A stretch of DNA of 37,699 bases from a virus, in IMG/VR virus record IMGVR_UViG_3300008113_000151, positions 1-37,699 of that record, one strand, 5' to 3'. This document shows positions 1 through 37,699 of this stretch, in pieces. The notes beneath the pieces were generated by a model. It had not been told where the DNA came from and did no database searches. It was given only the letters and a program-made list of their open reading frames with translations. The first letter of the stretch is position 1, and the number at the start of each line of letters is the position of its first letter. Made by a program: the position numbers and the translations under genes.

Positions 1-114
1 CTGCCCATACCTCGCCGTTAGTGCTGCGTCTAAAGTTAATGTTCTGATTCAAAGCGTAAAACTGATCGCCTAAAAATCTAACATTGGTCATTGATGCAGT
101 CGTCCCACTCACCC
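1..114. repeat. Terminal overlap showing circular closure
   Basis: These bases are identical to 37586-37699. The repeat cuts through one open reading frame that reads continuously across it. It is therefore best explained as the overlap of a circular or circularly permuted assembly, not as a biological terminal repeat. The unique genome length is 37,585 bp. Confidence 0.9.
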
Positions 115-2309: not shown

Positions 2310-3407
2310 TTAGAATGTGGTCAGCGCAACACGCTTCCAGCTATTTGCTGAAACGGCGACATAAAGGAAGTCTGAATCAACAGCGAACTCACCCAAACGC
2401 CCGGTAGATGTGGCAGTTGCGGGAACGGAGACAACCTGGGGATCAACGTAAGTGTCAAAAGCAAGCGTGTCTGTCGCCACGCCGTTTGCGTAAGTGCCCG
2501 TGTCAAAGTTCAGGGATAGCGTTACGTAATCAGCGCCGAAGAACTTATAGCGTGTCTTGCGCCCCTCAAGCGTCTCGTCAGCATCGACAAGTACGTAGTC
2601 CCCGTCCTCCAACTGCGTGGTGTCCACTGAAGCAAAGTTTGAGTAAACAAACGGTCTTGAGTACGGGTTTTGATAGCGCAAGAACACAAACGCATCTTCA
2701 ATTAAACCCGCCTGAAATGGCCCATCTGGGAATGAAAGCACAAGACTTGGATTGTCGGCCTGCTGATACTGATAAAACGATGCCTTGCCGTTCCTGCGCT
2801 CGTCTTCCAACACAAGAAACACTTGGTCGTACACAAGTGAAGCAATGCCCTCTGCCGCGTCACGGTAGGTCGTAAACACTTTGTACTGTGTGCTGATCGC
2901 GATAGCTGTGTCTTGCGCTTGGAGGGCGAAGTTTTGAGCTGTGACAGCAGATAGGTTTGCACTCGATGCGCCGGCCTGTGCAGAGTTAGTTAAACCCTGC
3001 ATGGTTGAAAGAGATTGCTGCGCCGTGACAGATGAATTTAAGGCGTTGGCTTCAGAGATGCCCGCAGCAGTGCTAGAGGCCACTGAAAGGCTTGCTGATG
3101 CAAACGCATTAGATTCACTGACTGCCGCGTTATTCTCGCTTGTAAGCGCGTTAGATTCGCTTGTTGCGGCATTAGTCTCGCTTGTTGCCGCGTTGGTCTC
3201 ACTCGCAAGCGCAGCCGCAGCACTCGCCACCGCCGTAGCTGCTGAAGTAGTAGCAGTGTTTAGATATATCGCAAAAGCAGGTGCAGAGACGAAATTGCCA
3301 ACCTTGGCGCGTCCAATATTCACACCATCCCGAGACAGAAGAACCAAGTCCTCATCTACAAAAGGCGCTGCAACTTCAACAAGTTGCCCAATTGTCTTAT
3401 CAGCCAT
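2310..3407 (-). CDS. Coiled-coil tail fibre protein
   Basis: 365 residues. The N-terminal 50 residues (MADKTIGQLVEVAAPFVDED) resemble a virion-attachment head. Residues about 55-165 are Ala/Ser/Thr-rich with a 7-residue period (variants of ASETNAA), typical of the trimeric coiled coil of lambda side-tail-fibre-like proteins. The C-terminal part (about 185-365) is globular, with aromatic/acidic strands, and ends in a GRLGEFAVDSDFLYV segment found at the tip of several phage fibres. It starts the fibre module directly after the portal and the small gene at 3438. Probable role: fibre shaft or adaptor (inference). Confidence 0.7.
   Translation of the reverse strand: MADKTIGQLVEVAAPFVDEDLVLLSRDGVNIGRAKVGNFVSAPAFAIYLNTATTSAATAVASAAAALASETNAATSETNAATSESNALTSENNAAVSESNAFASASLSVASSTAAGISEANALNSSVTAQQSLSTMQGLTNSAQAGASSANLSAVTAQNFALQAQDTAIAISTQYKVFTTYRDAAEGIASLVYDQVFLVLEDERRNGKASFYQYQQADNPSLVLSFPDGPFQAGLIEDAFVFLRYQNPYSRPFVYSNFASVDTTQLEDGDYVLVDADETLEGRKTRYKFFGADYVTLSLNFDTGTYANGVATDTLAFDTYVDPQVVSVPATATSTGRLGEFAVDSDFLYVAVSANSWKRVALTTF
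3040..3235 (-). repeat. 21-bp tandem repeats encoding the fibre heptads
   Basis: Degenerate 21-bp units encode consecutive heptads of the ASETNAATSE type in the fibre gene at 2310-3407. The units between about 3120 and 3210 are the most alike at DNA level, suggesting recent duplication of heptads. Such repeats change shaft length without breaking the frame. Confidence 0.7.
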
Positions 3408-3437
3408 TTTTACCCACCGACAACGATGTTAATGCAC

Positions 3438-3587
3438 TCATGCGTCCGACCCTTCAATTGCAGCGTTGTTGGTATCGGCTGGAGTATTAATAGTATTAAT
3501 ACAATCAATAAACCCTTGCTCGCCCTCTACCGTAGTGTAGACAATCTCATCTTCTTTGTACATTAAAGCGTCGTCTGGCTCACTCAT
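3438..3587 (-). CDS. Small hypothetical protein after the portal
   Basis: 49-residue acidic protein starting MSEPDDALMYKEDEIVY. Its ATG (3585-3587) overlaps the portal stop by ATGA, so it is very probably translationally coupled to the portal. I do not recognise a family. It has no membrane segment and no motif beyond a run of acidic residues at both ends. Confidence 0.65.
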   Translation of the reverse strand: MSEPDDALMYKEDEIVYTTVEGEQGFIDCINTINTPADTNNAAIEGSDA

Positions 3588-5875
3588 TGGTATTCCCCGC
3601 TTGATGGAGGCATTGGTGCAACACCGACAACTCGCCCCGATTGATCTCTAATCACTTGTTTAGGCTGGCTCATGGCTTGAGCGACCCCTGCATTACCTTG
3701 CTGAATCAGTGTGCCTAGCATTGCAATGGCTTGTGCCATCAACCCTTCTTTTTCGGCTTCGGAGGCATCTTCTTCTTCGACTTCATTGGACTGTCGCACG
3801 GCATCTTGATTACCCTTCATACCTGTTAGTTGTTTCAGTACCATTTCAGCTTCCTTCATGCGAAGTTCAGCGAGAATTTTCTGTTCCTGCATCTCAAGTT
3901 CGAGTTGTTTGCGAGCCATATCAGCCTGCATTTGCTCACGCTCAAGCATCAGTTTAGCCGAGGCAATCTGTTGGTCAGCCTGCATCTTGGCTGAGTCAAT
4001 CTGCATCTTCATCTGCGCCTTTTCGCGCTCAACCTGTGCCAACATCTCTGCTGCTTGCGTATTCGGATCAGGCTGTGGTGGTTGCTCTGGCATCTGGAAG
4101 TCAGCAGGTAACTGGGTTACAAACTGCTGTGCATTGCGGAAACCCGCCAGTTCGACCATCTTAGACAGTGTGTTGCTGTACTGAGCGAGTGACACCAACG
4201 GGTTGGTCGGGCCAAGTGATTGCAAAATTAGTTCCTGCTTCTGGGCCAAGCCAGTCAGCACATTGAACTTCTCATTCTGTGTGCCACCGCCAAGCCCCAC
4301 TGCAATGGATACATCCATGCCGCTTGACCAATAACGCGGATCAATCGTCACCCACTCGTTGCGCAACTTAATCGTGCGAGGCTTATCCTGGTGAACAGTA
4401 ATGAGCCTAAACACCAAGCGGAACAAGTCCTGCATCCCATTTGCAAGGTGACGCGTAATCAGTTCAATGCGAGCCTGTGAAGCAGTCATCTGTGCGCTTG
4501 CAGCCGTGGCGGTGGTGTTGCGTAGTGCCTCGGCATCCAAGCCCATGCTGGACTTGCTAATGCCTGTCCTATCTTCTTTGACGCTGTCAATGTAGCCCAA
4601 CATCTGCAAGCCTGAGCCAGATGTGTCATTGGTCATCAATGGCAGAACGGCTTGCGGGTTCTTAGCTCGAATGATTGCGCCAACTTCATTGTTAAGCACA
4701 TCATCAATGTTCACCTGCCCCTCAACCACCACGGTTCTAGGATTAATGGCTTGAGCGAGCGAGTCAAGGCTATTACGCCATACAACCGATTTGACCCGCT
4801 GTATATCCAACAGGTCATCTGCAATAGACGTGGCTTCCAGCGCGTTTAAGTGAGGCTCAGGATCGACGCAGAAGGCTACGAAGGGGTGATAGTCCACATC
4901 CTCGACTGAGAGGACGTGATAGCCGCTACCAACCGTGCAAACCTTGAGCATTTCAGCAATGCCATCGTCGTTGCGGTCAATATAGGCGTAGGACTCAACA
5001 TACAACACCTGCCGCATTGCCTCGTTAATCGCTGCCTCGTTACCGTCGTAACGGCGGTAATCCGTCCGAGCTAGGTAAAGTTCGTTATCATCCAATCCCT
5101 CGTCAGTCGTGTGGCTCTCAATTTCCTCACGGTCATAACCCATTGCAACTAAATCGCTGACTGTCATCAATCGGCGGTGGGCAATGAAGGATTCACCCAA
5201 TTTGGTGTCACGGCGAGCAACCAACACCTCTTCAGGCGGCACTTCGCACACCATAATTGCGCCCTTCTTTTGCTTGCGCGTAATGGTGCAATCGTATGTG
5301 GGAACCTGAACAGGCATTTGCTGCCCCGTTATGGGGTCTGTGGCGGCTTGCTGAGTGAAGGTTGTACCTGTAACCTCAACCTCAGTGTCAGGCTCCTGCT
5401 GGAGCAACATGAGTGTGTCTGAATCCAATCCGGTGTAGCGTTGGGTTGAGGTGGTTTCCTTTTCATCCCACCAGACTTTGACAAAGCCAGCCTTGGTAAT
5501 GAGTGCGTCTTTGGCTACGGCGTAGAAGGTTTGGAAGAAGTTGTTATCTGCACCAAGCACAACGTGCTGCACATAATCTGTTGCTTGATCGGCTGTTTCC
5601 TCGTCCTCTGGCCCAGTGGGGGAGAACTCAACCACACGGTCAGATGAGAAGAACACGCGCATGATGGAGGGCAACATGCTCTGCACAACATCTCGCACAT
5701 CACGGGAAACCATGCGGGAACGCCCCTCTTCAGACTCTACATCGGGCAGGTCGCCCTGATAGTAGCGAGTGGCTAAGGCGCGGATGCCCGACAATTCCTC
5801 ATCGACGTAATAAATGGCTGAGTCGATCTCAGCCGCTACGATTGCCTTTAACTGGCTGTCGTCGAGTTTCGCCAT
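3584..5875 (-). CDS. Portal protein (P22-like)
   Basis: 763 residues, the size of P22-type portals. The N-terminal region (DVVQSMLPSIMRVFFSSD, then ATDYVQHVV and DALITKAGFVKVWW) is the characteristic portal clip/wing core of podophages. Residues about 585-690 form a long Glu/Gln/Met/Lys-rich helix (KAQMKMQIDSAKMQAD and following), matching the barrel coiled coil of P22-like portals. It should form the dodecameric head vertex through which DNA enters and leaves and which binds TerL during packaging. It lies 50 bp downstream of TerL and overlaps the next small gene by ATGA. Confidence 0.9.
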   Translation of the reverse strand: MAKLDDSQLKAIVAAEIDSAIYYVDEELSGIRALATRYYQGDLPDVESEEGRSRMVSRDVRDVVQSMLPSIMRVFFSSDRVVEFSPTGPEDEETADQATDYVQHVVLGADNNFFQTFYAVAKDALITKAGFVKVWWDEKETTSTQRYTGLDSDTLMLLQQEPDTEVEVTGTTFTQQAATDPITGQQMPVQVPTYDCTITRKQKKGAIMVCEVPPEEVLVARRDTKLGESFIAHRRLMTVSDLVAMGYDREEIESHTTDEGLDDNELYLARTDYRRYDGNEAAINEAMRQVLYVESYAYIDRNDDGIAEMLKVCTVGSGYHVLSVEDVDYHPFVAFCVDPEPHLNALEATSIADDLLDIQRVKSVVWRNSLDSLAQAINPRTVVVEGQVNIDDVLNNEVGAIIRAKNPQAVLPLMTNDTSGSGLQMLGYIDSVKEDRTGISKSSMGLDAEALRNTTATAASAQMTASQARIELITRHLANGMQDLFRLVFRLITVHQDKPRTIKLRNEWVTIDPRYWSSGMDVSIAVGLGGGTQNEKFNVLTGLAQKQELILQSLGPTNPLVSLAQYSNTLSKMVELAGFRNAQQFVTQLPADFQMPEQPPQPDPNTQAAEMLAQVEREKAQMKMQIDSAKMQADQQIASAKLMLEREQMQADMARKQLELEMQEQKILAELRMKEAEMVLKQLTGMKGNQDAVRQSNEVEEEDASEAEKEGLMAQAIAMLGTLIQQGNAGVAQAMSQPKQVIRDQSGRVVGVAPMPPSSGEYQ

Positions 5876-5882
5876 GTCGGGT

Positions 5883-5928
5883 TAAGCCCTTAAATGTTTT
5901 CAAGATTGTACTTATGTTCAAGGGCTTA
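5883..5928. repeat. Inverted repeat between TerL and portal
   Basis: TAAGCCCTT (5883-5891) and AAGGGCTTA (5920-5928) form a perfect 9-bp inverted repeat with a 28-bp loop. The right arm contains the TerL stop codon, and the left arm sits just before the portal start. There is no U-run, so it is not a terminator. It could modulate portal translation or mRNA processing (inference). Confidence 0.45.
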
Positions 5929-7212
5929 CACAATACCCTTGAGGGCGCGTCGGATGGGGGCTGAACTACTGGCTTCTCGAAGTCCAACAGCGAGGTATCG
6001 GGTACAATCTGCCGCGTGACTTGCAAAGTTATGTAGCGGCCTGTCGTAAAACACCTGGCGCTTCTGGTCATACTCACGCCGATACTGTTTAAGCAGGTCA
6101 AGCGCCCGTAGAACAGTGTCAGAGTTATTGAACCACATCTTAGGCAGTGCCATCCGCACAGCGTTAATTCCGTCCTCAATAGACAACTTAGGCGCAACCG
6201 TTGGCTGTATGCCCATCATCTGCAACATCTCAAAACGGCTTTTACCCGTGCCAAGCTCCCGCACTTGGACGTCATGCGGCAGAATGTAGTCGCCCATTGT
6301 CCACCCGTTTGACTTAGCGCGTTCCTCAATCTGCTTGACGTACCAATCAAGCCCTACGCCGTTGTTCTCCAAATAATCCAACATGCGTATCTGACCGGCA
6401 GGTGTGACCTGATAGAACCATATTGCCGTGTCATCCGACATACCTAAGTCCCAAGCCGTGTTCACCCTTAGCATAGGCTCATGCGGCACAGCAGCAACAC
6501 GCCCTTGCGCTTCTGCCTCTCGCAACAGATCGCCGTAGTACGCACCGACAATAGCAGCGTCAAACGAGCACTCAAACTCCTGCGCGTACTCGTTATCACT
6601 TAGGGCGCGTTTTAAGCGGTCTAGTTCCTCTTGCGGGATGATGTTGGTATCAGATGCTTTAAGCACCTGCACAAACCACTCTGGGTCGGTTCTAGCGAGT
6701 TTAAACGTCTCTCCCAGCAGGTTGCCCCAACCCTTCGGTGTGCCAGACAAGTCTAGCCACCCTTGGCGGTCTGCCAGCGCGGGATAAATAATCTGCGTCA
6801 GCACGTAAGGGGGGATGTCCTGCGCCTCATCAGCGCAAATACCGTCAAAATACAAACCGCGCAAGCGTTCTGCATTTTCAGCGCCGTATAAACGAATGTT
6901 TGCGTTATTGTGGGCAAATGTAATTGATAACTCAGACTCATTAACTTTACCGCCCAATGCGGTAATAGGCGCGGCATAATATTTTAAATAAGCCCAAGCA
7001 ATATCTTTGGCCTGAATATAAAACGGTGCAAGATAACCAAAGCGAGGATTAGGCTTTGTGCAAGTAGCCGCCTCTCGAATTAGTTTATTAATCCGTGCAA
7101 CCGTTTTACCCGCACGTCGATGAGCAATTGTGACTGAATACCTTTTATCAGTATCGTGATATGCCGCAAAGCAATCCCTCGGCGTGTAATCAATCTCAAT
7201 CACTTTTTCCAT
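5926..7212 (-). CDS. terL: Terminase large subunit
   Basis: 428 residues, the usual length for TerL. The ATPase domain shows Walker A as AHRRAGKT (about residues 30-37) and Walker B as GICADEAQ (about 124-131), followed by the coupling motif LSGTPKG. The nuclease domain begins near TAWDLGMSDDTAIW (first catalytic Asp about residue 255) and ends with an HAAD segment typical of the last nuclease acid. It cuts and pumps DNA through the portal at 3584-5875. Its start lies inside the 3' end of the TerS gene (13-bp overlap), giving a coupled TerS-TerL-portal block. Confidence 0.95.
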   Translation of the reverse strand: MEKVIEIDYTPRDCFAAYHDTDKRYSVTIAHRRAGKTVARINKLIREAATCTKPNPRFGYLAPFYIQAKDIAWAYLKYYAAPITALGGKVNESELSITFAHNNANIRLYGAENAERLRGLYFDGICADEAQDIPPYVLTQIIYPALADRQGWLDLSGTPKGWGNLLGETFKLARTDPEWFVQVLKASDTNIIPQEELDRLKRALSDNEYAQEFECSFDAAIVGAYYGDLLREAEAQGRVAAVPHEPMLRVNTAWDLGMSDDTAIWFYQVTPAGQIRMLDYLENNGVGLDWYVKQIEERAKSNGWTMGDYILPHDVQVRELGTGKSRFEMLQMMGIQPTVAPKLSIEDGINAVRMALPKMWFNNSDTVLRALDLLKQYRREYDQKRQVFYDRPLHNFASHAADCTRYLAVGLREASSSAPIRRALKGIV

Positions 7213-19641: not shown

Positions 19642-19736
19642 TCTGGTGTTTGATCCCACCAGTAGGACATCGCAAGAGTATAGGAGAGCTATTGCAATTG
19701 GGTATTCTCACCAAAGGAACAACGGGAGAGCAATGA
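19638..19736 (+). CDS. Possible 32-residue protein
   Basis: A GTG start overlaps the previous stop as GTGA and gives VIWCLIPPVGHRKSIGELLQ and 12 more residues. There is no family match. The coupling is the only support. The remaining bases to 19771, where leftward and rightward genes converge, hold nothing I recognise and no clear terminator. Confidence 0.3.
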   Translation: MIWCLIPPVGHRKSIGELLQLGILTKGTTGEQ

Positions 19737-19771
19737 CTAAGGGCATTATGGCATAAGTGTTATTCTAAATG

Positions 19772-20656
19772 CTAGTCTACAATCTCTTTAAAAAGCCCAA
19801 AAGGGTCGTAACCAAACTCGTTTATGGAGTTTCCTTCTGTAAAAAGACTCCCGGCGGGTACTTTCTTTTTTAAGATTTTTGAACCTTCACCAAAATAATT
19901 TCCATGCTGTTTTGCATACTCAAGGCTTGGCGTTACCCAATCGTAAGGGTTTATTTCACTAGACTCTACACTGTTAGGGACTGCCCGATAAACCGTTACC
20001 TCTTGAAGCGGATTGTCCTTTGCCGTTTGAAATGCACGAATAGTAGCTGCATCTTGTTTACCACCTTCACCAAAATATCTTAAAGCCTGTGAGCTATAAA
20101 TATCGTCACCAAAGGCAGGAGATAGGTTAGCCATAGTGGCGTCACCTTTGGCATCAAAAGCAGGTGCCTGATGACCACCAACATATTCACCCCTTTGAAT
20201 TGGATTGTCGTAATCAATTTCCAGTTTTTTTGCGAGTTTTCTAGCTTGGTCAGCACTGTATGGCGTTCCATCGGGAAGCATATTACTCATCACCGCCGGA
20301 GCCTGCGCTTGCATAAACGCCTTTTGGTACGTGGATGGGGTTACAGCAGTCTTAGCCGCTCTCACAAGCCCTGACGAACCCGGTGTAGGCACAAACCCAC
20401 CCATTGCCTCACCCATGCCAATCACGTTCTTATCCTTACCCACCGCAGGGATGTAATCGAGGATATTCTGCGAAGTTGGCAACGGCTGCTTGTCTGACAG
20501 CAAGCCTAGAATGTCTCCAGGTGCACCAAGCGTTGCCGCCACACTGCCTCTAGCAGCGTTACCTAGCATGGGCAAAAGCCCTTGAGTCACGGCATCGTAA
20601 ACGCCTGTGGCGGTGGAGCGTAAGTTAGCGTTTTTCTGTGCGCGTGGGTTTGGCAT
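19772..20656 (-). CDS. Predicted ADP-ribosyltransferase ejection protein (ART-PolyVal type)
   Basis: 294 residues, last gene of the late region. The N-terminal 90 residues (VYDAVTQGLLPMLGNAARGS) look like an internal-virion segment rich in Gly and Ala. The C-terminal half has VTVYRAVP (Arg about residue 223), DWVTPSLEYAKQHG (Ser/Thr about 241-243), KKVPAGSLFTEGNSINEFGYDP (Glu about residue 283). This is the R-S/T-E order of ADP-ribosyltransferases and closely matches the ART domain described in polyvalent proteins of phages and mobile elements. Likely injected with the DNA to modify a host target (inference). Confidence 0.65.
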   Translation of the reverse strand: MPNPRAQKNANLRSTATGVYDAVTQGLLPMLGNAARGSVAATLGAPGDILGLLSDKQPLPTSQNILDYIPAVGKDKNVIGMGEAMGGFVPTPGSSGLVRAAKTAVTPSTYQKAFMQAQAPAVMSNMLPDGTPYSADQARKLAKKLEIDYDNPIQRGEYVGGHQAPAFDAKGDATMANLSPAFGDDIYSSQALRYFGEGGKQDAATIRAFQTAKDNPLQEVTVYRAVPNSVESSEINPYDWVTPSLEYAKQHGNYFGEGSKILKKKVPAGSLFTEGNSINEFGYDPFGLFKEIVD

Positions 20657-21892
20657 TTATTCCTCGTTATTGGGTATGGCGAGTAGTCCTGCTGGAGCAA
20701 CAGCACCCGCGCTGAACATCTGATTTGGAAACTGCATAAACTTGCGAATTCTGTCCTCTACACTGCCGGGTTCGTAGAATTGCAGGTTTTCAATCCCGCC
20801 ACGGCGCAAAATATCAATTGTGCTACCTGACGCATCCCCTGGCACGATTGCACCAGAAAACTCATTTAGACCCACCGCCCTTTGTGGTTTAACCTCAAAG
20901 TATTCTGTCGGCAGGTTTGGGTCAGATAATCTACCTAAAAGCCCTCGCGCTTGTTCAAATGACGCTTCATCAAGGTTTGGATACAAACGGCGTAAAACCT
21001 CTGGATTGCGCTTCTCTGCGGCCTCTAGCAGTGCGTCACCTGCATCGTACCGACCAGCACCGGATAACAGTCCTGTGACGTTTGAATACTCATCAGAAAG
21101 GCTTTTTGCTATTGGCTCAAACTCAGATGACGGAAGTACGTTACCCCGAGACGCTTGAACCTGATCGAAGGTTCTAAATTTAGGTTGAGCCACGGCACGA
21201 AGGTTTCCAATGCCGTATGAAAAGCCCTCTGTGTTTGCTCCGCCTTTCATTTCCTTAACAATGTTGTCAAGCGTTGCAGGAGCATAACGGCGATTGCCTG
21301 ATTGCGTGTAGCCTTTAAAGATTCGTTCAGATGTATCAATACCCATTGACGGCAGTTCAGATACAAACTTGTTGATGTAGTCGTCAAAGTACGGAGAATC
21401 AGATGCCAAGTTGCTGATTAAAGAACTGTATTCCCAATTGTTCATATTGCCCTTTTCAGGCAAACGTCCAGTATCAGCAAGAAACTTTCTCTGTACGGCA
21501 TCTGAATAGCGCAATTCTCCACGGTCAGCAAAATCCTGTGAAAGTTTCTTTGCGCTGTATGTGTCAATGCCAAAAACATCAGCAAGTTTATCAATGCCTT
21601 TTTTTGACACCTCAACCTCAATCCGAGGACGACGTGCCGTATAAGCATCAGACCTGTAAACGGGGTTTTTGGTTGATGGCTTGGCAAACTCTTTAGGCGC
21701 AATCAGGGAGATATCACCGAAGTTTGTAAGTGGCGCGTCAGCCTTGCTTACGGCCAGTGACGGAACAGGAAGCCCACCAAGTTTGTCAGCAGCAGCAAGT
21801 TTGTCAGCACGGACATTGTGCTGAACAATTAGGGGTGCTTCCTTAACCCCTAACGCCTTCATCAGTTTAATCATACTTGCGGGGGTGGGCAT
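20657..21892 (-). CDS. Polyvalent-protein-like ejection protein
   Basis: 411 residues. The N-terminal part, LIVQHNVRADKLAAADKLGG, then LPVPSLAVSK, LTNFGDISLI and YRSDAYTARRPRIEV, matches a conserved domain found in large polyvalent proteins of phages and conjugative elements (known association; function unclear). The C-terminal half is helical with GLLGRLSDPNLPTEYFEVKP. It abuts the ADP-ribosyltransferase gene directly, without a gap, so the two may represent a split form of a larger effector protein carried in the virion. Confidence 0.6.
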   Translation of the reverse strand: MPTPASMIKLMKALGVKEAPLIVQHNVRADKLAAADKLGGLPVPSLAVSKADAPLTNFGDISLIAPKEFAKPSTKNPVYRSDAYTARRPRIEVEVSKKGIDKLADVFGIDTYSAKKLSQDFADRGELRYSDAVQRKFLADTGRLPEKGNMNNWEYSSLISNLASDSPYFDDYINKFVSELPSMGIDTSERIFKGYTQSGNRRYAPATLDNIVKEMKGGANTEGFSYGIGNLRAVAQPKFRTFDQVQASRGNVLPSSEFEPIAKSLSDEYSNVTGLLSGAGRYDAGDALLEAAEKRNPEVLRRLYPNLDEASFEQARGLLGRLSDPNLPTEYFEVKPQRAVGLNEFSGAIVPGDASGSTIDILRRGGIENLQFYEPGSVEDRIRKFMQFPNQMFSAGAVAPAGLLAIPNNEE

Positions 21893-21893
21893 A

Positions 21894-23501
21894 TTAGTCT
21901 CCTGTCAAAAGTCCACCGAGGTACGGTGAACCCGCACTCAAGCCTGCGCCTACACGCTGCATGGCTTGGGGTCGTTGTGCTGCTATAAACCGCTGAAACG
22001 CGTTCATAGCGGGATCAGTGTACGCCAATGATGCCAAGCCGGTCAGACTTGCTGCAACAGGACTGACAGCCCCAGCAGCACCCGTCATAAGCCCCATCGC
22101 CGCCAAACGTCCAGCCGTACCAGAGTCCGGTGTCTTGCTGCCCAAACGCTCTACACCCTGTTGAGCAAACGCACCTAGTTCAGTTTCTCCACGACGAGAT
22201 GCACCTTTGCGGATTGATGTATCAGCCCTTGCTGCCGATTGCGCCAACTGTGCAGGTGAAAATATACCTTCAACACTACCGCCAACAGGCACAGCCGTTT
22301 CAATTGCTACAAACTTGGAATAACCCTCATCAGTTTTGCGGAGGTCTTTAGCAAGTTTGCGGTTCTGGTTTTGCAACGACATACCCACCGACTCATCAAG
22401 TTTACGGAAAGGTTCATACAGCAAACCCTCGTTACCTTGAACACCTTTGTATGCCAAAGCATCATTTCTCAAGTCTTGTCGCAGTGCTTTGATACGTGCC
22501 CCGCTGATAGGGCCTCCAGACAACTCGCCCATGACCGCTTCAACGCGCTTATTGAAAAACGCTTTTTGCTCATCTGGCAATTTGCTGCTATACCGATTCA
22601 CAATCCCCACGAGTTGATTTTCAAGCGTCTTGTTGTAGCCCAATGTCATTGCAGGGTAGATTCGGTCATACTCAGCGCCAAGCCGGTCGCGAGTAAACGT
22701 TAGCGCATCCCGCACTGTACCCGTACGAGGCACTTTCTCACCGATTGGCGCAAGTGCTTTGTCAAGCGCAGCAAAGTCAAATGACTTGAGCGAACTCATT
22801 TTTGCAGGGTTAATCAGCGACTTGATACCCGGTGTGCCTGCACCCACTTCCTCAAGACTTTCAACCACGCCGCCCAAAGCCTGCCCAGGTGTCATGCGAA
22901 CACCTTGCTCCATTAGCTTACGTGCTGTGGGGTCTAACTCAGGGCGCATTGTTCGACCAAGCGCACCACCGCCAACAGACAACCCCGCCCCCATCAGTGT
23001 ATTGGGGATAATGTTTTCGGTTATTGCCTCTGGTGTTTCAGCCTTGCCCACTGTCTCAGCCGCACCCATTGCACCGCCTGTAAGTCCTGTGCGTAGCAGA
23101 CTAGGCACCTTGCTTGCCCCTTTAAGCATCATGCCGCCGGGCACAACCAAGCTGCCGCCAATCTCTGCCGCTGTACTAGTCACAGGGTAATCCTGCCCAA
23201 AAGAGGCTTGTTGGCTACGCAAACGGTCACGCATGGCTTCGTACTGTTGCCCTGACATTGCACCTGTACGCGCTGCTGCTTCCAACTCATCACCAAAACC
23301 CATCGTCAAACCTTGACCCACTGAGCGCAAACCCTCTGCCATAGGCGAATAGGGCACACGTTCACGCGCACCTGTCATGGGGGCTACTGCTGCGCCTTGC
23401 ACTTGCGATAATGCTGCCTGATACGCATCGTTATCACTCATCGGGGTTTGAGACTTGACGCGGTACTTTTGACCTTCAATGGTTACAATGTACTCGTTCA
23501 T
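21894..23501 (-). CDS. Internal virion / DNA ejection protein (535 aa)
   Basis: The N-terminus MNEYIVTIEGQKYRVKSQTP is a small beta motif common to podophage internal proteins. It is followed by Gly/Ala-rich helices that could insert in a membrane (SLVVPGGMMLKG, GLTGGAMGAAETV, IPNTLMGAGLSVGGGALG) and a long helical region (FTRDRLGAEYDRIYPAMTLG). This composition fits proteins ejected ahead of DNA to form a channel in the host envelope. No lytic transglycosylase motif is visible. It overlaps the preceding gene by ATGA. Confidence 0.6.
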   Translation of the reverse strand: MNEYIVTIEGQKYRVKSQTPMSDNDAYQAALSQVQGAAVAPMTGARERVPYSPMAEGLRSVGQGLTMGFGDELEAAARTGAMSGQQYEAMRDRLRSQQASFGQDYPVTSTAAEIGGSLVVPGGMMLKGASKVPSLLRTGLTGGAMGAAETVGKAETPEAITENIIPNTLMGAGLSVGGGALGRTMRPELDPTARKLMEQGVRMTPGQALGGVVESLEEVGAGTPGIKSLINPAKMSSLKSFDFAALDKALAPIGEKVPRTGTVRDALTFTRDRLGAEYDRIYPAMTLGYNKTLENQLVGIVNRYSSKLPDEQKAFFNKRVEAVMGELSGGPISGARIKALRQDLRNDALAYKGVQGNEGLLYEPFRKLDESVGMSLQNQNRKLAKDLRKTDEGYSKFVAIETAVPVGGSVEGIFSPAQLAQSAARADTSIRKGASRRGETELGAFAQQGVERLGSKTPDSGTAGRLAAMGLMTGAAGAVSPVAASLTGLASLAYTDPAMNAFQRFIAAQRPQAMQRVGAGLSAGSPYLGGLLTGD

Positions 23502-24879: not shown

Positions 24880-25824
24880 TTAACTAAACAAGCCAAGTGC
24901 GCCACCAATCAACGCACCTGTGCCTGCGGTTATCGGCCCACCTGCTGCGCCAATAGATGCACCCGCAGCCGCACCAGACAAAGCACCACCACCAACAGAG
25001 CCAACCAAGTTACGTCTTTGTGTCGGAGATGATGTGCTTGAACCATACGGTAGCTGACTGCCACTGAACGCGGATTGCAAGATGCCCAAACGCTCAAGAG
25101 GTAAGTTACGAGCAGCATCAAGCCTTTGCTGTTCAAGGTCGCGCTGAAGGTCGCCGCTTGAAATTTGAGCTTGCGCGTTACCAAGAAAACTACGGTTCAT
25201 CAACTCGTAATTCTGCATCTGTGCAAGTCGGTCAGCCTGTGCCGCACCTAACGCTGATTCATAACCTTGCGCTCTCAGTCCTGCACTTGTACGTGCTTGT
25301 TGATCCATGAAGTTACGGTTGTTCTCTGCCTCTGCCACCGCCTGCCGTGAGCCGCCAAATGCCCCACGAGAAAGCGCCTGTGCGTTGATACCCTGTTGCT
25401 GCATCAAACGTGCGCGGTCGTTATCCGCAAGGCTCTGGTCGATTACCTGCTGTGTGTATGGGTTCTGATAGTCTGCGATTCGATTACCAAGGAAGGCATT
25501 TGATGCCATGCCAGCAACGCCTTGCTCTGCTGCTTGCATAGATTGTGGGTTAAATCCTTTGTTAAGCCACGAGGTAGCATTAACGCCTTGGTTTTCTAGG
25601 TCGGACAACCCAGCAAACTGTCGTACTTGCAGTGGCGAGTCAAAAGCAAGCCCTCTGGCGGTATTGAAAATATCCTGTTGATAATTCTGTACGTAAGCAG
25701 GAATGTTGGCCCTTTGCTCAACAACTTGAGTGCCGCCACCTTTGCCACCGTAAAATGTCAGAGATTCAATCAACCTTGGAATAAAATTAAAAATCGTAAA
25801 CATTCCACTATCCCCGTTTAGCAT
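24880..25824 (-). CDS. DNA-transfer-type internal protein (314 aa)
   Basis: Starts at ATG 25824, or possibly ATG 25803 (MFTIFNFIPRLIES). A Gly-rich head (YGGKGGGTQ) is followed by a long helical, Gln/Asn/Ala-rich body (TARGLAFDSPLQVRQFAGLS, QQGINAQALSRGAFGGSRQA, ARTSAGLRAQGYESALGAAQ). A Gly/Ala-rich hydrophobic C-terminus (GGALSGAAAGASIGAAGGPI) could cross a membrane. This matches the layout of DNA-transfer proteins ejected by P22-like and related podophages. Confidence 0.65.
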   Translation of the reverse strand: MLNGDSGMFTIFNFIPRLIESLTFYGGKGGGTQVVEQRANIPAYVQNYQQDIFNTARGLAFDSPLQVRQFAGLSDLENQGVNATSWLNKGFNPQSMQAAEQGVAGMASNAFLGNRIADYQNPYTQQVIDQSLADNDRARLMQQQGINAQALSRGAFGGSRQAVAEAENNRNFMDQQARTSAGLRAQGYESALGAAQADRLAQMQNYELMNRSFLGNAQAQISSGDLQRDLEQQRLDAARNLPLERLGILQSAFSGSQLPYGSSTSSPTQRRNLVGSVGGGALSGAAAGASIGAAGGPITAGTGALIGGALGLFS

Positions 25825-30536: not shown

Positions 30537-31502
30537 TTAGGCCAATGTCGTGGTCAGGTCGAATACGCCGCCCAAACCCTTTTCATTGGTAACTTCCAAG
30601 CCCCACTCAGCCAAACACATAAACTTGCGAGCGTCGCCAGTCTTGGCAAGTTCTTCGCAAGAGTATGGGCGCAGGGTGTTCACAGACACGTAATCGGTGT
30701 CAATGAACAGTGCGTCACGCTCACGCTGGAAGGCGTTAGGAACGATAGACACAGGGCCAAAATCGCCCAAATAAACGTCTGCTGCACCAACGATGGTTGC
30801 AGTCTTTCTGTTTGTCTCGGTACGCAGTTGAGCAATACCAGCAAAGGTTGAGAACTTCTGCTTGTTCACAGGCCCGACCATGACCATATCGGTCTTAGCA
30901 CCGTTCTTGTACAGTTGTTGCAGAACGTCCTTAACCTGTGTTTCGGTGAAGGCGCGTTGTGTGCCGTCAGTGCGAACAGCAGTAGGAACGTTGGTGTAAA
31001 CAGGGTTTGCGCCCGTTGCACCAATGTTGGTGTTGGTCTTGATGAACGCCAGCACAGAACCAGTCTTACGTGGGTTGGTGGTTGCATCACCAGCAGCAGC
31101 GCCCTGATTGCTCAACAAAATGGCTTCTGCATCACGGCGAATTTCCAAGCCCTTCAACACCTTCTGATAGTTAATTTCAGAAGCGCGGCCCGCTTTACGA
31201 ACCTTTTCTTCGGTTTCGGAAATCAGGAAGGACTTACGCATAATCTGCGTGTAATTGCCCAAACGAATGGTAGGGGTAAGGGCTGCGTATGTTGTATCAT
31301 CGCCCTCAACAAACGCGTTATTCAGATCAACGGCGTTCAAGTCTTGGGTCTGCCACTCATAAAAAGTGTTGGATACAGACTTCTTGCCAGCGTTAGAGAT
31401 GAAAGGGGTTTCTTCCATTGCCACACGGCTGATTACGTCTGAAAGTTCTTCGCGGATGCCTTTAGCGGCATAGGTCTGAAATGTATTAGCAATTACTGCC
31501 AT
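30537..31502 (-). CDS. Major capsid protein (SU10 family)
   Basis: 321 residues. The N-terminus MAVIANTFQTYAAKGIREEL, SDVISRVAMEETPFISNAGK is the start of the SU10 major head family (DUF5309-like, HK97 fold). Later IRLGNYTQIMRKSFLISETE, LKGLEIRRDAEAILLSNQG and VYLGDFGPVSIVPNAF follow the same family. It starts 13 bp after the scaffold gene, and the scaffold-capsid order is as expected. There is no visible prohead protease, consistent with an uncleaved capsid protein. Confidence 0.88.
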   Translation of the reverse strand: MAVIANTFQTYAAKGIREELSDVISRVAMEETPFISNAGKKSVSNTFYEWQTQDLNAVDLNNAFVEGDDTTYAALTPTIRLGNYTQIMRKSFLISETEEKVRKAGRASEINYQKVLKGLEIRRDAEAILLSNQGAAAGDATTNPRKTGSVLAFIKTNTNIGATGANPVYTNVPTAVRTDGTQRAFTETQVKDVLQQLYKNGAKTDMVMVGPVNKQKFSTFAGIAQLRTETNRKTATIVGAADVYLGDFGPVSIVPNAFQRERDALFIDTDYVSVNTLRPYSCEELAKTGDARKFMCLAEWGLEVTNEKGLGGVFDLTTTLA

Positions 31503-31515
31503 GATGTTTCTCCAA

Positions 31516-32487
31516 TTAAGATTTCAAAAAACTAAGTAAAGCGGCCGCGTCTCTAATCGAACCTGTTTGGCTCAAACGCTGCTCGGCACGTTTCTTTGCA
31601 GAGTTATCCACAGTCCCCTTTGAACCAGGCTTTACCACTTGCTTTGCAACTGCGGGTTTTTGATTCACCACCGCCTGTTTCTTGCTCATCAACTGGTCAT
31701 ATAGCGCCGCTTTACGCAGTGCTACGATTGCCCTATGGTCAAAGGCTTGTGCAAGCTCATCATCAGAAAAGCCCAACTTCTTACCCTGCTCGATCACCAT
31801 TTGCTTTTCCGCTTTGGCTTTCTCTGCGTCTTTCCATTCTGGCACTACTGCCAACAATGCCTGACGCTCTCGCTCAAGGGTTTGAGCCATGATTTTCTGT
31901 TGCTCAACCTGCTGTAACTGCCCTAGCCGTTGTTGTTCAGCCGCAATGACTTGCTGCTTTTGCTGCTTTCGCTGCCACTCAGTCCACTGTAAGCTGTACT
32001 CAATCGGGTCTGTTGCTCGCAACGTGTCCCAATCGGGTTCTGCCCCTGCGGTTTGCTGAAGTTGCTCTGCCAAAGCTCCCAACAACTGCTGATACTGCTG
32101 CCTTTCACTCAGAACCGCATTTGCCTCAGCCTCAAACGTTCTACGCTGTTCAGCCAATTCCTGCGTTTTCTTCGTGTAGTCCTTCTGCCTCATGTAGCTG
32201 GCTTTGACATCCTCCGGTGTGACCTTGATTTGCTCGCCATCAATCTCTAGCGTCAAACTCTCAGGTTCCGTAGGCTCATCTTCGCCTTCTTCATCGACTT
32301 CAGACTCGCCTTCCTCTTCAGGCTCTTCACCCTCTGGTTCCGACTCGGACTCAGGTATTTCTACCTCGTCCTGTTGTGCCTCGACTTCGCCCTGTTCTCC
32401 GTCATCCGGCAGAGGTGTATCAAGTGCTGCTGCTGCGTCCATCAAAGATAATGATCCAGTCCCGCTAGGGGTTGCTGAAGTATCCAT
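31516..32487 (-). CDS. Scaffolding protein
   Basis: 323 residues. Residues about 28-78 are a very acidic, disordered stretch (Glu/Asp/Ser/Pro). Residues about 100-240 are a long Gln/Glu/Arg coiled coil, and the C-terminus is basic (KKRAEQRLSQTGSIRDAAAL). This acidic-coil-basic layout, together with the position directly before the capsid gene, is characteristic of scaffolds. The basic end should bind the inner face of the capsid and the protein should leave before packaging. Confidence 0.8.
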   Translation of the reverse strand: MDTSATPSGTGSLSLMDAAAALDTPLPDDGEQGEVEAQQDEVEIPESESEPEGEEPEEEGESEVDEEGEDEPTEPESLTLEIDGEQIKVTPEDVKASYMRQKDYTKKTQELAEQRRTFEAEANAVLSERQQYQQLLGALAEQLQQTAGAEPDWDTLRATDPIEYSLQWTEWQRKQQKQQVIAAEQQRLGQLQQVEQQKIMAQTLERERQALLAVVPEWKDAEKAKAEKQMVIEQGKKLGFSDDELAQAFDHRAIVALRKAALYDQLMSKKQAVVNQKPAVAKQVVKPGSKGTVDNSAKKRAEQRLSQTGSIRDAAALLSFLKS

Positions 32488-36909: not shown

Positions 36910-37699
36910 AGCGTTTTCGCAGTCAGCTCAGCGGTTGTCATAGCGTCTTTGTAAATAATCACGTCCTTGATGTACCCGTTAAGATTCTCCGCAATCGACG
37001 CAGCCGTAATGACCGGAATCGTCGCAGCCGTGTCGCTGGTGCTTGCCACACCGTTAAGTGCAGCGATCACTTGGTTTTGCTTGTAGCTCAAAGCGATTTT
37101 GTTCACACCAGACTTGAACTGCGGCAAAGGCTGATTGCTTTGCAAAGTCGTTCCGAGAATCGAAGCTGTGCCTGAGTTTTGGACGGCTGTCCATGTGATT
37201 GCGTCTGGTGAGTACAGAAGAACACCGCCGTTACCTGCGGCATACCAGAGTTGATCGCGTTGGGAGAACATGACGGAGTTGAGGTTGGCGGTTGTGTTGG
37301 AGGTGCGGATAACATGATTTGCGCCGTTTGCATCTAGGGTCACAATTGTTCCTGCCTGCCCGACCAAAACAAAGATGTTGTTTGCAAAATCGACACCTCT
37401 GAGTTGTCCTGTTGCAGACGGGGTAACGCCTGTGATGGTTATCGTCAGCCAAGATGCGCCGTTATCCGTGCTTCTACGAATTGTTCGAGTAGTGCCTGCG
37501 GCAGTGGAAAGCGCAACAACAAACACGTTGCCGTTTCTAGCAATGTCTTCGTGAATGTAACCTACATCTGCTGACACCGGTATTTCTGCCCATACCTCGC
37601 CGTTAGTGCTGCGTCTAAAGTTAATGTTCTGATTCAAAGCGTAAAACTGATCGCCTAAAAATCTAACATTGGTCATTGATGCAGTCGTCCCACTCACCC
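36906..37699 (-). CDS. Tail-fibre/adhesin propeller region (3' part)
   Basis: This is the C-terminal 226 residues (36906-37585) of the adhesin whose upstream part lies at 1-1093; bases 37586-37699 repeat the window start. It contains the last propeller-type repeats, with motifs such as RRSTDNGASW and YSPDAITW. It finishes with a short segment, NGYIKDVIIYKDAMTTAEL, that resembles the last strands of a LamG/concanavalin-like domain. A GTG at 37695-37697 could be read as a start, but the frame is open far upstream, so it is internal. The stop overlaps the ATG of the next gene (36909) by ATGA. The family assignment rests on repeat pattern only. Confidence 0.75.
   Translation of the reverse strand, partial: VSGTTASMTNVRFLGDQFYALNQNINFRRSTNGEVWAEIPVSADVGYIHEDIARNGNVFVVALSTAAGTTRTIRRSTDNGASWLTITITGVTPSATGQLRGVDFANNIFVLVGQAGTIVTLDANGANHVIRTSNTTANLNSVMFSQRDQLWYAAGNGGVLLYSPDAITWTAVQNSGTASILGTTLQSNQPLPQFKSGVNKIALSYKQNQVIAALNGVASTSDTAATIPVITAASIAENLNGYIKDVIIYKDAMTTAELTAKTL
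37586..37699. repeat. Terminal overlap (copy of 1-114)
   Basis: Exact copy of the first 114 bases of the window, marking circular closure. No gene should be counted twice here. Confidence 0.9.

What the first reader, a model, noticed from the sequence alone, without database searches (positions are those of the whole stretch)
19772..20656. Predicted ADP-ribosyltransferase carried in the virion
The last late gene combines an internal-virion-like N-terminus with an ART-PolyVal-like C-terminus containing the expected Arg, Ser/Thr and Glu in order. If packaged and ejected it would act on host proteins before phage genes are expressed, as T4 Alt does with a different architecture.
Basis: partly seen in the sequence, partly recalled or inferred. 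Interest (0 to 1): 0.65.

Follow-up and report, generated by a model that had tools for sequence, protein, structure and literature searches.

The report
Predicted virion-borne phage ADP-ribosyltransferase
The last gene of this small phage's structural operon probably encodes an enzyme that tags host molecules with ADP-ribose, joined to a leader shared with giant phage proteins thought to be injected with the DNA; its enzyme family is common in phages but seems to be unnamed and is mislabelled in a phage protein library.

Summary
The ORF is real: 19772-20656, minus strand, 294 aa, last gene of the late operon. It has two modules. Residues 1-~105 are a leader shared with polyvalent proteins of other phages, some lying between terminase and portal genes. 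Residues ~151-294 are a compact domain found in at least 446 IMG/VR contigs and 171 phage records. PHROGs calls it 'ParB C-terminal domain'; Pfam and NCBIfam have no name for it.

AlphaFold2 models the domain with confidence (pLDDT 90). Every PDB chain with VIA-align Z of 2 or more has the ADP-ribosyltransferase (ART) fold, though each match is weak (best Z 5.1). In 72 distinct homologues Arg224 and Glu280 are invariant and position 242 is Thr/Ser in 97%: an R-[T/S]-E site in ART order.

It is not Pfam's ART-PolyVal family, which is H-Y-D. Iyer 2017 stated that the R-S-E ARTs of the T4 Alt/VIP2 family are absent from genuine polyvalent proteins; this R-[T/S]-E family occurs in them, sometimes beside ART-PolyVal.

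Virion carriage is inferred from the leader, gene position and neighbours (ejection proteins, a PBECR5 nuclease), not shown. In the closest relative the slot holds a different leader with no enzyme.

The parts
19772..20656 (-). Whole ORF, 294 aa: leader plus ART-like domain
20342..20656 (-). Leader, residues 1-~105 (MPNPRAQK...AARGSVAATLGAPGDIL...MGEAMGGFVPTP), shared with polyvalent proteins carrying other cargo
   Evidence: AlphaFold2 gives no confident fold
19772..20206 (-). ART-like domain, residues 151-294 (phrog_2579 match 154-285)
19985..19987 (-). Arg224 codon, predicted NAD-binding Arg of strand 1 (VYRAVP)
   Evidence: invariant in 72 of 72; aligns with ModA R72 and ModB R73
19925..19933 (-). 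T242-P243-S244, STS-like motif after strand 2 (DWVTPS)
   Evidence: position 242 T or S in 97% of 72; strand then helix in the model
19817..19819 (-). Glu280 codon, predicted catalytic Glu (SINEFGYDP)
   Evidence: invariant in 72 of 72; directly before a strand in the model
20657..21892 (-). Neighbouring predicted effector: PBECR5 nuclease-type protein, 411 aa, directly upstream and abutting
   Evidence: Pfam PF18814 E 8e-22
21894..23501 (-). Ejection-protein-like gene upstream, 535 aa
   Evidence: phrog_26400 'DNA ejection protein' E 2e-6
24880..25824 (-). Second ejection-protein-like gene, 314 aa
   Evidence: phrog_4287 'DNA ejection protein' E 3e-4

Best explanation
The gene encodes a small effector carried in the virion. 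A ~105-residue leader directs or accompanies packaging with the ejection proteins. The C-terminal ~135-residue domain is an ADP-ribosyltransferase of R-[T/S]-E type that, after ejection with the DNA, takes ADP-ribose from NAD+ and attaches it to a host macromolecule before phage genes are expressed. Shown here by computation: the two modules, the invariant R and E with T/S at 97%, the ART-like predicted fold, the late-operon position, and the sharing of the leader with polyvalent proteins. Inferred: NAD+ use, a host target, packaging and ejection. Glu280 has Ile (mostly Ile/Leu in the family), not Glu or Gln, two residues before it, so the acceptor need not be arginine (inference from general knowledge of ExE/QxE enzymes).
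For: AlphaFold2 of the domain on 37 sequences: pLDDT 90.3, pTM 0.84. All 31 PDB entries listed at VIA Z>=2 are ART-fold (Tpt1/KptA, Arr, TreX, TreTu, Vis, SdeA mART and others), and Foldseek's top six are all ARTs. R, E, H162 and W240 are invariant and T/S242 97% in 72 distinct homologues. The profile aligns its Arg with T4 ModA R72 and ModB R73; the hhalign score 22.5 exceeds all 60 column-shuffled controls, maximum 19.35; R73 inactivation of ModB is reported in PMC10468400. Packaging: the gene abuts a PBECR5 gene and follows ejection-protein genes; the leader recurs on giant proteins encoded between TerL and portal and on one with a genuine ART-PolyVal domain; homologues L047 and L100 join the same leader to the same ART.
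Against: No single structural match is strong (best Z 5.1 over 74 residues; Foldseek E >= 0.59), and sequence profiles do not reach any known ART family. No virion proteomics exists for this phage. Standalone copies in mycobacteriophages lie among small non-structural genes, so the domain does not need a virion to be useful. The leader has no confident predicted fold and no proven role.
Confidence: 0.55

Rival explanations
1. It is an active ART but is not packaged: it is made late and acts inside the producing cell, for example on lysis, translation or a competing phage.
For: Standalone homologues exist outside structural gene clusters, for example Contagion gp125 and Vibrio phage 1.081 gene 40. 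Several IMG/VR relatives are standalone ORFs.
Against: Here it is the last gene of the structural operon, fused to a leader found on polyvalent proteins and directly behind ejection-protein and PBECR5 genes.
Confidence: 0.22
2. It has the ART fold but another activity, such as NAD+ hydrolysis or an RNA or nucleotide reaction like Tpt1/KptA, its nearest solved fold.
For: The best structural matches are Tpt1/KptA. The residue two before the Glu is Ile/Leu/Trp, not the Glu or Gln of protein-modifying R-S-E enzymes. His162 is an extra invariant residue.
Against: No match to the Tpt1 family profile in the window. Tpt1 carries no R-[T/S]-E triad (general knowledge). R-S-E enzymes mostly modify macromolecules (PMC9503650).
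Confidence: 0.15
3. The C-terminal domain is not an ART but a ParB C-terminal or DNA-binding domain, as PHROGs and some GenBank records label it.
For: phrog_2579 is named 'ParB C-terminal domain' and RefSeq mycobacteriophage records use that name.
Against: The match covers only positions 337-462 of the 472-position phrog profile, the predicted fold is alpha/beta and matches only ARTs, and the invariant polar residues fit an enzyme. Pfam finds no ParB domain.
Confidence: 0.05
4. It is a decaying accessory gene without a current function.
For: The slot is not conserved: the closest relative has a 121-aa leader-like protein without an enzyme, another relative has a different gene set, and 48 records of phages with related capsids lack the domain (most are fragments).
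Against: The window copy is an intact 294-aa frame and keeps every invariant residue of the family.
Confidence: 0.03

Closest known systems
Polyvalent proteins (Iyer et al. 2017, PMC5512222)
   Same: Late-gene context, the same leader type on proteins with ART-PolyVal, PcfJ or LPD23 domains, and the same ART domain inside genuine polyvalent proteins
   Different: The window protein carries only one recognised enzyme domain. Its ART is R-[T/S]-E, whereas that paper describes polyvalent ARTs as H-Y-D and the R-S-E Alt/VIP2 family as absent from genuine polyvalent proteins
Phage T4 Alt
   Same: Proposed logic: an ART packaged in the head, ejected with the DNA, acting before phage transcription
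   Different: 294 aa with a different leader; no detected match to Alt/VIP2-type Pfam models; packaging unproven; no ExE motif
Phage T4 ModA/ModB family
   Same: R-S-E order; the invariant Arg aligns with ModA R72 and ModB R73
   Different: hhalign probability only 3.6%; no ExE motif; Mod proteins are made in the cell, not injected
Pfam ART-PolyVal PF18760
   Same: Same predicted superfamily; side by side in one polypeptide in L074, and weakly in L053 and L072
   Different: H-Y-D active site versus R-[T/S]-E; no profile relationship
PHROG 2579 'ParB C-terminal domain'
   Same: Same protein family (E 6e-30)
   Different: The name probably comes from another part of long members; the domain itself is ART-like

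Membership tests
ART superfamily | ART fold | tested here: met
   Confident model; all VIA rows with Z>=2 are ART-fold, though individual scores are low (best Z 5.1)
ART superfamily, R-S-E type | Arg in strand 1, Ser/Thr after strand 2, Glu before a later strand, in order and conserved | tested here: met
   R224 and E280 invariant, T/S242 97% of 72; strand positions
ART superfamily | NAD+-dependent transferase activity | not testable with these tools
   needs an enzyme assay
Pfam ART-PolyVal PF18760 | match to the family profile | tested here: not met
   no hit; hhalign probability 0.8%
Pfam ART-PolyVal PF18760 | His-Tyr-Asp active site | tested here: not met
   Arg in strand 1 and Glu at the third position, versus H-Y-D in PMC5512222 section 9
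T4 Mod family | profile similarity | tested here: inconclusive
   hhalign probability 3.6%, score above 60 shuffled controls
T4 Mod family | R-S-ExE motif | tested here: not met
   I278-N279-E280 here; Ile/Leu/Trp two before Glu across the family
Tpt1/KptA | match to PF01885 | tested here: not met
   no match in the window while E. coli and two other controls ring
Tpt1/KptA | shared fold | tested here: inconclusive
   best VIA match, Z 5.1 over 74 residues
Polyvalent proteins | two or more effector domains in one polypeptide | tested here: not met
   leader plus one enzyme domain here; homologues L047, L051, L060, L074 do meet it
Polyvalent proteins | encoded among virion genes | tested here: met
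   last gene of the operon holding capsid, scaffold, tail and ejection genes
Virion-ejected ART (T4 Alt type) | present in virions and ejected into the host | not testable with these tools
   needs proteomics and an ejection assay
ParB C-terminal domain | ParB-type domain in the matched region | tested here: inconclusive
   no Pfam ParB hit; the predicted fold matches ARTs; no ParB profile was tested directly

The most novel reading that the evidence does not exclude
An unnamed, widespread R-[T/S]-E ADP-ribosyltransferase family, mislabelled as ParB in PHROGs, is a main enzyme cargo of polyvalent proteins in environmental phages, delivered behind exchangeable leaders; the window shows a two-part version, leader plus enzyme. 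Its unusual I/L-x-E motif and invariant His and Trp would point to an acceptor unlike that of Alt and Mod.
Probability: 0.45. Interest if true: 0.65.

Novelty: new variant of a known kind. Interest (0 to 1): 0.5.

Why it matters
Proteins that phages inject ahead of their own gene expression decide the first minutes of infection, and few besides T4 Alt are understood. This gives a minimal 294-aa candidate with a clear catalytic prediction, a reusable leader that could be tested as a packaging tag, and a name for a domain present in hundreds of phage contigs that standard libraries miss or mislabel. It also qualifies a published statement that R-S-E ARTs (of the Alt/VIP2 family) are absent from polyvalent proteins.

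Tried and rejected
Pfam, NCBIfam and PDB sequence profiles: no significant match; a DRAT hit at E 0.05 in single members was treated as chance. ART-PolyVal membership: rejected. A combined full-length alignment (A4) misaligned leaders onto the ART domain and was not used for folding; leader and domain were aligned apart. Leader structure prediction failed (pLDDT 47). The invariant MPNPRAQK octapeptide is partly a search artefact, since it was a search pattern; a search without it and a blast without it show that the rest of the leader recurs with MPNPRAQQ or no such motif. Terminator scan found no hairpin for the late operon at 19642-19771. A search of bacterial genomes found only 15 loci, nearly all from metagenome-assembled genomes, so the family looks viral. 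No paper naming this family was found; the 2015 ART review was not held.

Full report
What is there. The ORF 19772-20656 on the minus strand encodes 294 aa. The window is a 37.7-kb virus record with a 114-bp direct terminal repeat, so probably a complete genome. The minus-strand late genes include terminase large subunit and portal (3584-7212), scaffold and major head protein (30537-32487), tail and lysis genes, two genes matching 'DNA ejection protein' families, a PBECR5 gene and, last, this ORF. Its ATG abuts the stop of the PBECR5 gene, with GAGG just upstream. The late-gene set resembles that of podoviruses; capsid relatives include Sulfitobacter, Sinorhizobium and Pelagibacter phages.

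Two modules. Residues 154-285 match phrog_2579 (E 6e-30). Residues 1-101 match, at 31-40% identity, the starts of 800-1700-aa proteins of other phages whose remaining sequence is different. In L001 that giant protein lies between a TerL gene and a portal gene of the same portal family as the window's. L004 joins the leader to a genuine ART-PolyVal domain, L001 and L007 to PcfJ, L025 to LPD23. The octapeptide MPNPRAQK was one of the search patterns, so its constancy is biased; searches without it still find the leader, including in L047 and L100, where it precedes a metallopeptidase-like region and the same ART domain. The window protein is therefore best read as a short form of that architecture, without the peptidase part. 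The leader has no confident fold.

The C-terminal domain. Homologues: 171 phage records and 446 IMG/VR stretches, of which the best 80 were fetched. Among 62 distinct fetched examples, 24 lie in proteins of 1000 aa or more, 21 at the C-terminus of 280-700-aa proteins and 6 are standalone. In L074 it sits directly next to an ART-PolyVal domain in one frame; in L053 and L072 a weaker ART-PolyVal match, below the family cut-off, lies next to it. In 72 distinct near-complete sequences H162, R224, W240, E280 and, where present, G282 are invariant and position 242 is Thr or Ser in 97%.

Fold. AlphaFold2 on 37 window and IMG/VR sequences gives pLDDT 90.3 and pTM 0.84. R224 is in a strand, T242 ends a short strand followed by a helix, and E280 precedes a strand. 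Foldseek against PDB gives no significant hit, but its top six are ART-fold enzymes. Of 290 chains realigned by VIA-align, the 31 entries listed at Z>=2 are all ART-fold, best Tpt1/KptA at Z 5.1, rmsd 2.8, 74 residues; the lethal-factor row covers its VIP2-like domain (own knowledge). BFVD hits are 15 direct relatives, none named as an ART. Weak single scores and a consistent superfamily together support a divergent ART; they do not prove activity.

Which ART. ART-PolyVal is H-Y-D (PMC5512222), and the profiles do not match (hhalign probability 0.8%). Against a nine-sequence T4 Mod alignment hhalign gives probability 3.6%, too weak for membership, but the score beats 60 column-shuffled controls and the Arg falls on ModA R72 and ModB R73, the latter shown to be essential. 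The residue two before the Glu is Ile/Leu/Trp, not Glu or Gln, so arginine specificity should not be assumed. [quoted passage not shown] this R-[T/S]-E domain is in such proteins. I found no paper that names the family, in an open-access library only.

Is it in the virion? Inference only. For: operon position behind ejection genes, abutting PBECR5, which Iyer 2017 predicts to be injected; leader shared with proteins between TerL and portal. The closest relative (L136: ejection protein 72% and PBECR5 59% identical) has at the same place, behind a similar ribosome site, a 121-aa protein resembling a different leader (that of L043, 41% identity) with no enzyme, and its genome lacks the domain while seven of eight records in the same control search were positive. 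A more distant relative has other genes there. The slot is variable, as expected for an accessory effector. Against: standalone copies in mycobacteriophages lie among small non-structural genes.

Verdict. Novelty: a new variant of a known kind.

Noticed in passing
window 20657-21892 (-): Gene directly upstream is a PBECR5-type predicted nuclease (Pfam PF18814, E 8e-22), a second likely injected effector; residues 195-394 also match phrog_22978, a 3513-position family.
   Followed up: partly
window 1-114 and 37586-37699: A 114-bp direct terminal repeat, so the record is probably a complete genome although it is a virus contig.
   Followed up: no
L136:9862-10227: Closest relative carries a 121-aa leader-like protein without any enzyme domain in the slot of the ART gene; 41% identical to the leader of L043, whose protein does carry the ART domain.
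   Followed up: partly
L074:4554-5408: An ART-PolyVal domain and the new ART domain lie in tandem in one 2448-aa protein; weaker ART-PolyVal matches lie next to the domain in L053 and L072.
   Followed up: partly
L097:3867-5495: The ART domain is split over two ORFs by a stop between the first helices and the Arg strand; an intervening element, a frameshift or a sequencing error.
   Followed up: no
L027 (MW202462.1) 3962-4876 and L028 (MG592456.1) 2974-3627: These two homologues carry a 45-60-residue insert between the Arg strand and the Thr/Ser motif.
   Followed up: no
PHROG 2579 and RefSeq mycobacteriophage records such as NC_022065.1 gp125: The label 'ParB C-terminal domain' is attached to a 129-aa protein that consists almost only of the ART-like domain; likely misannotation.
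   Followed up: partly
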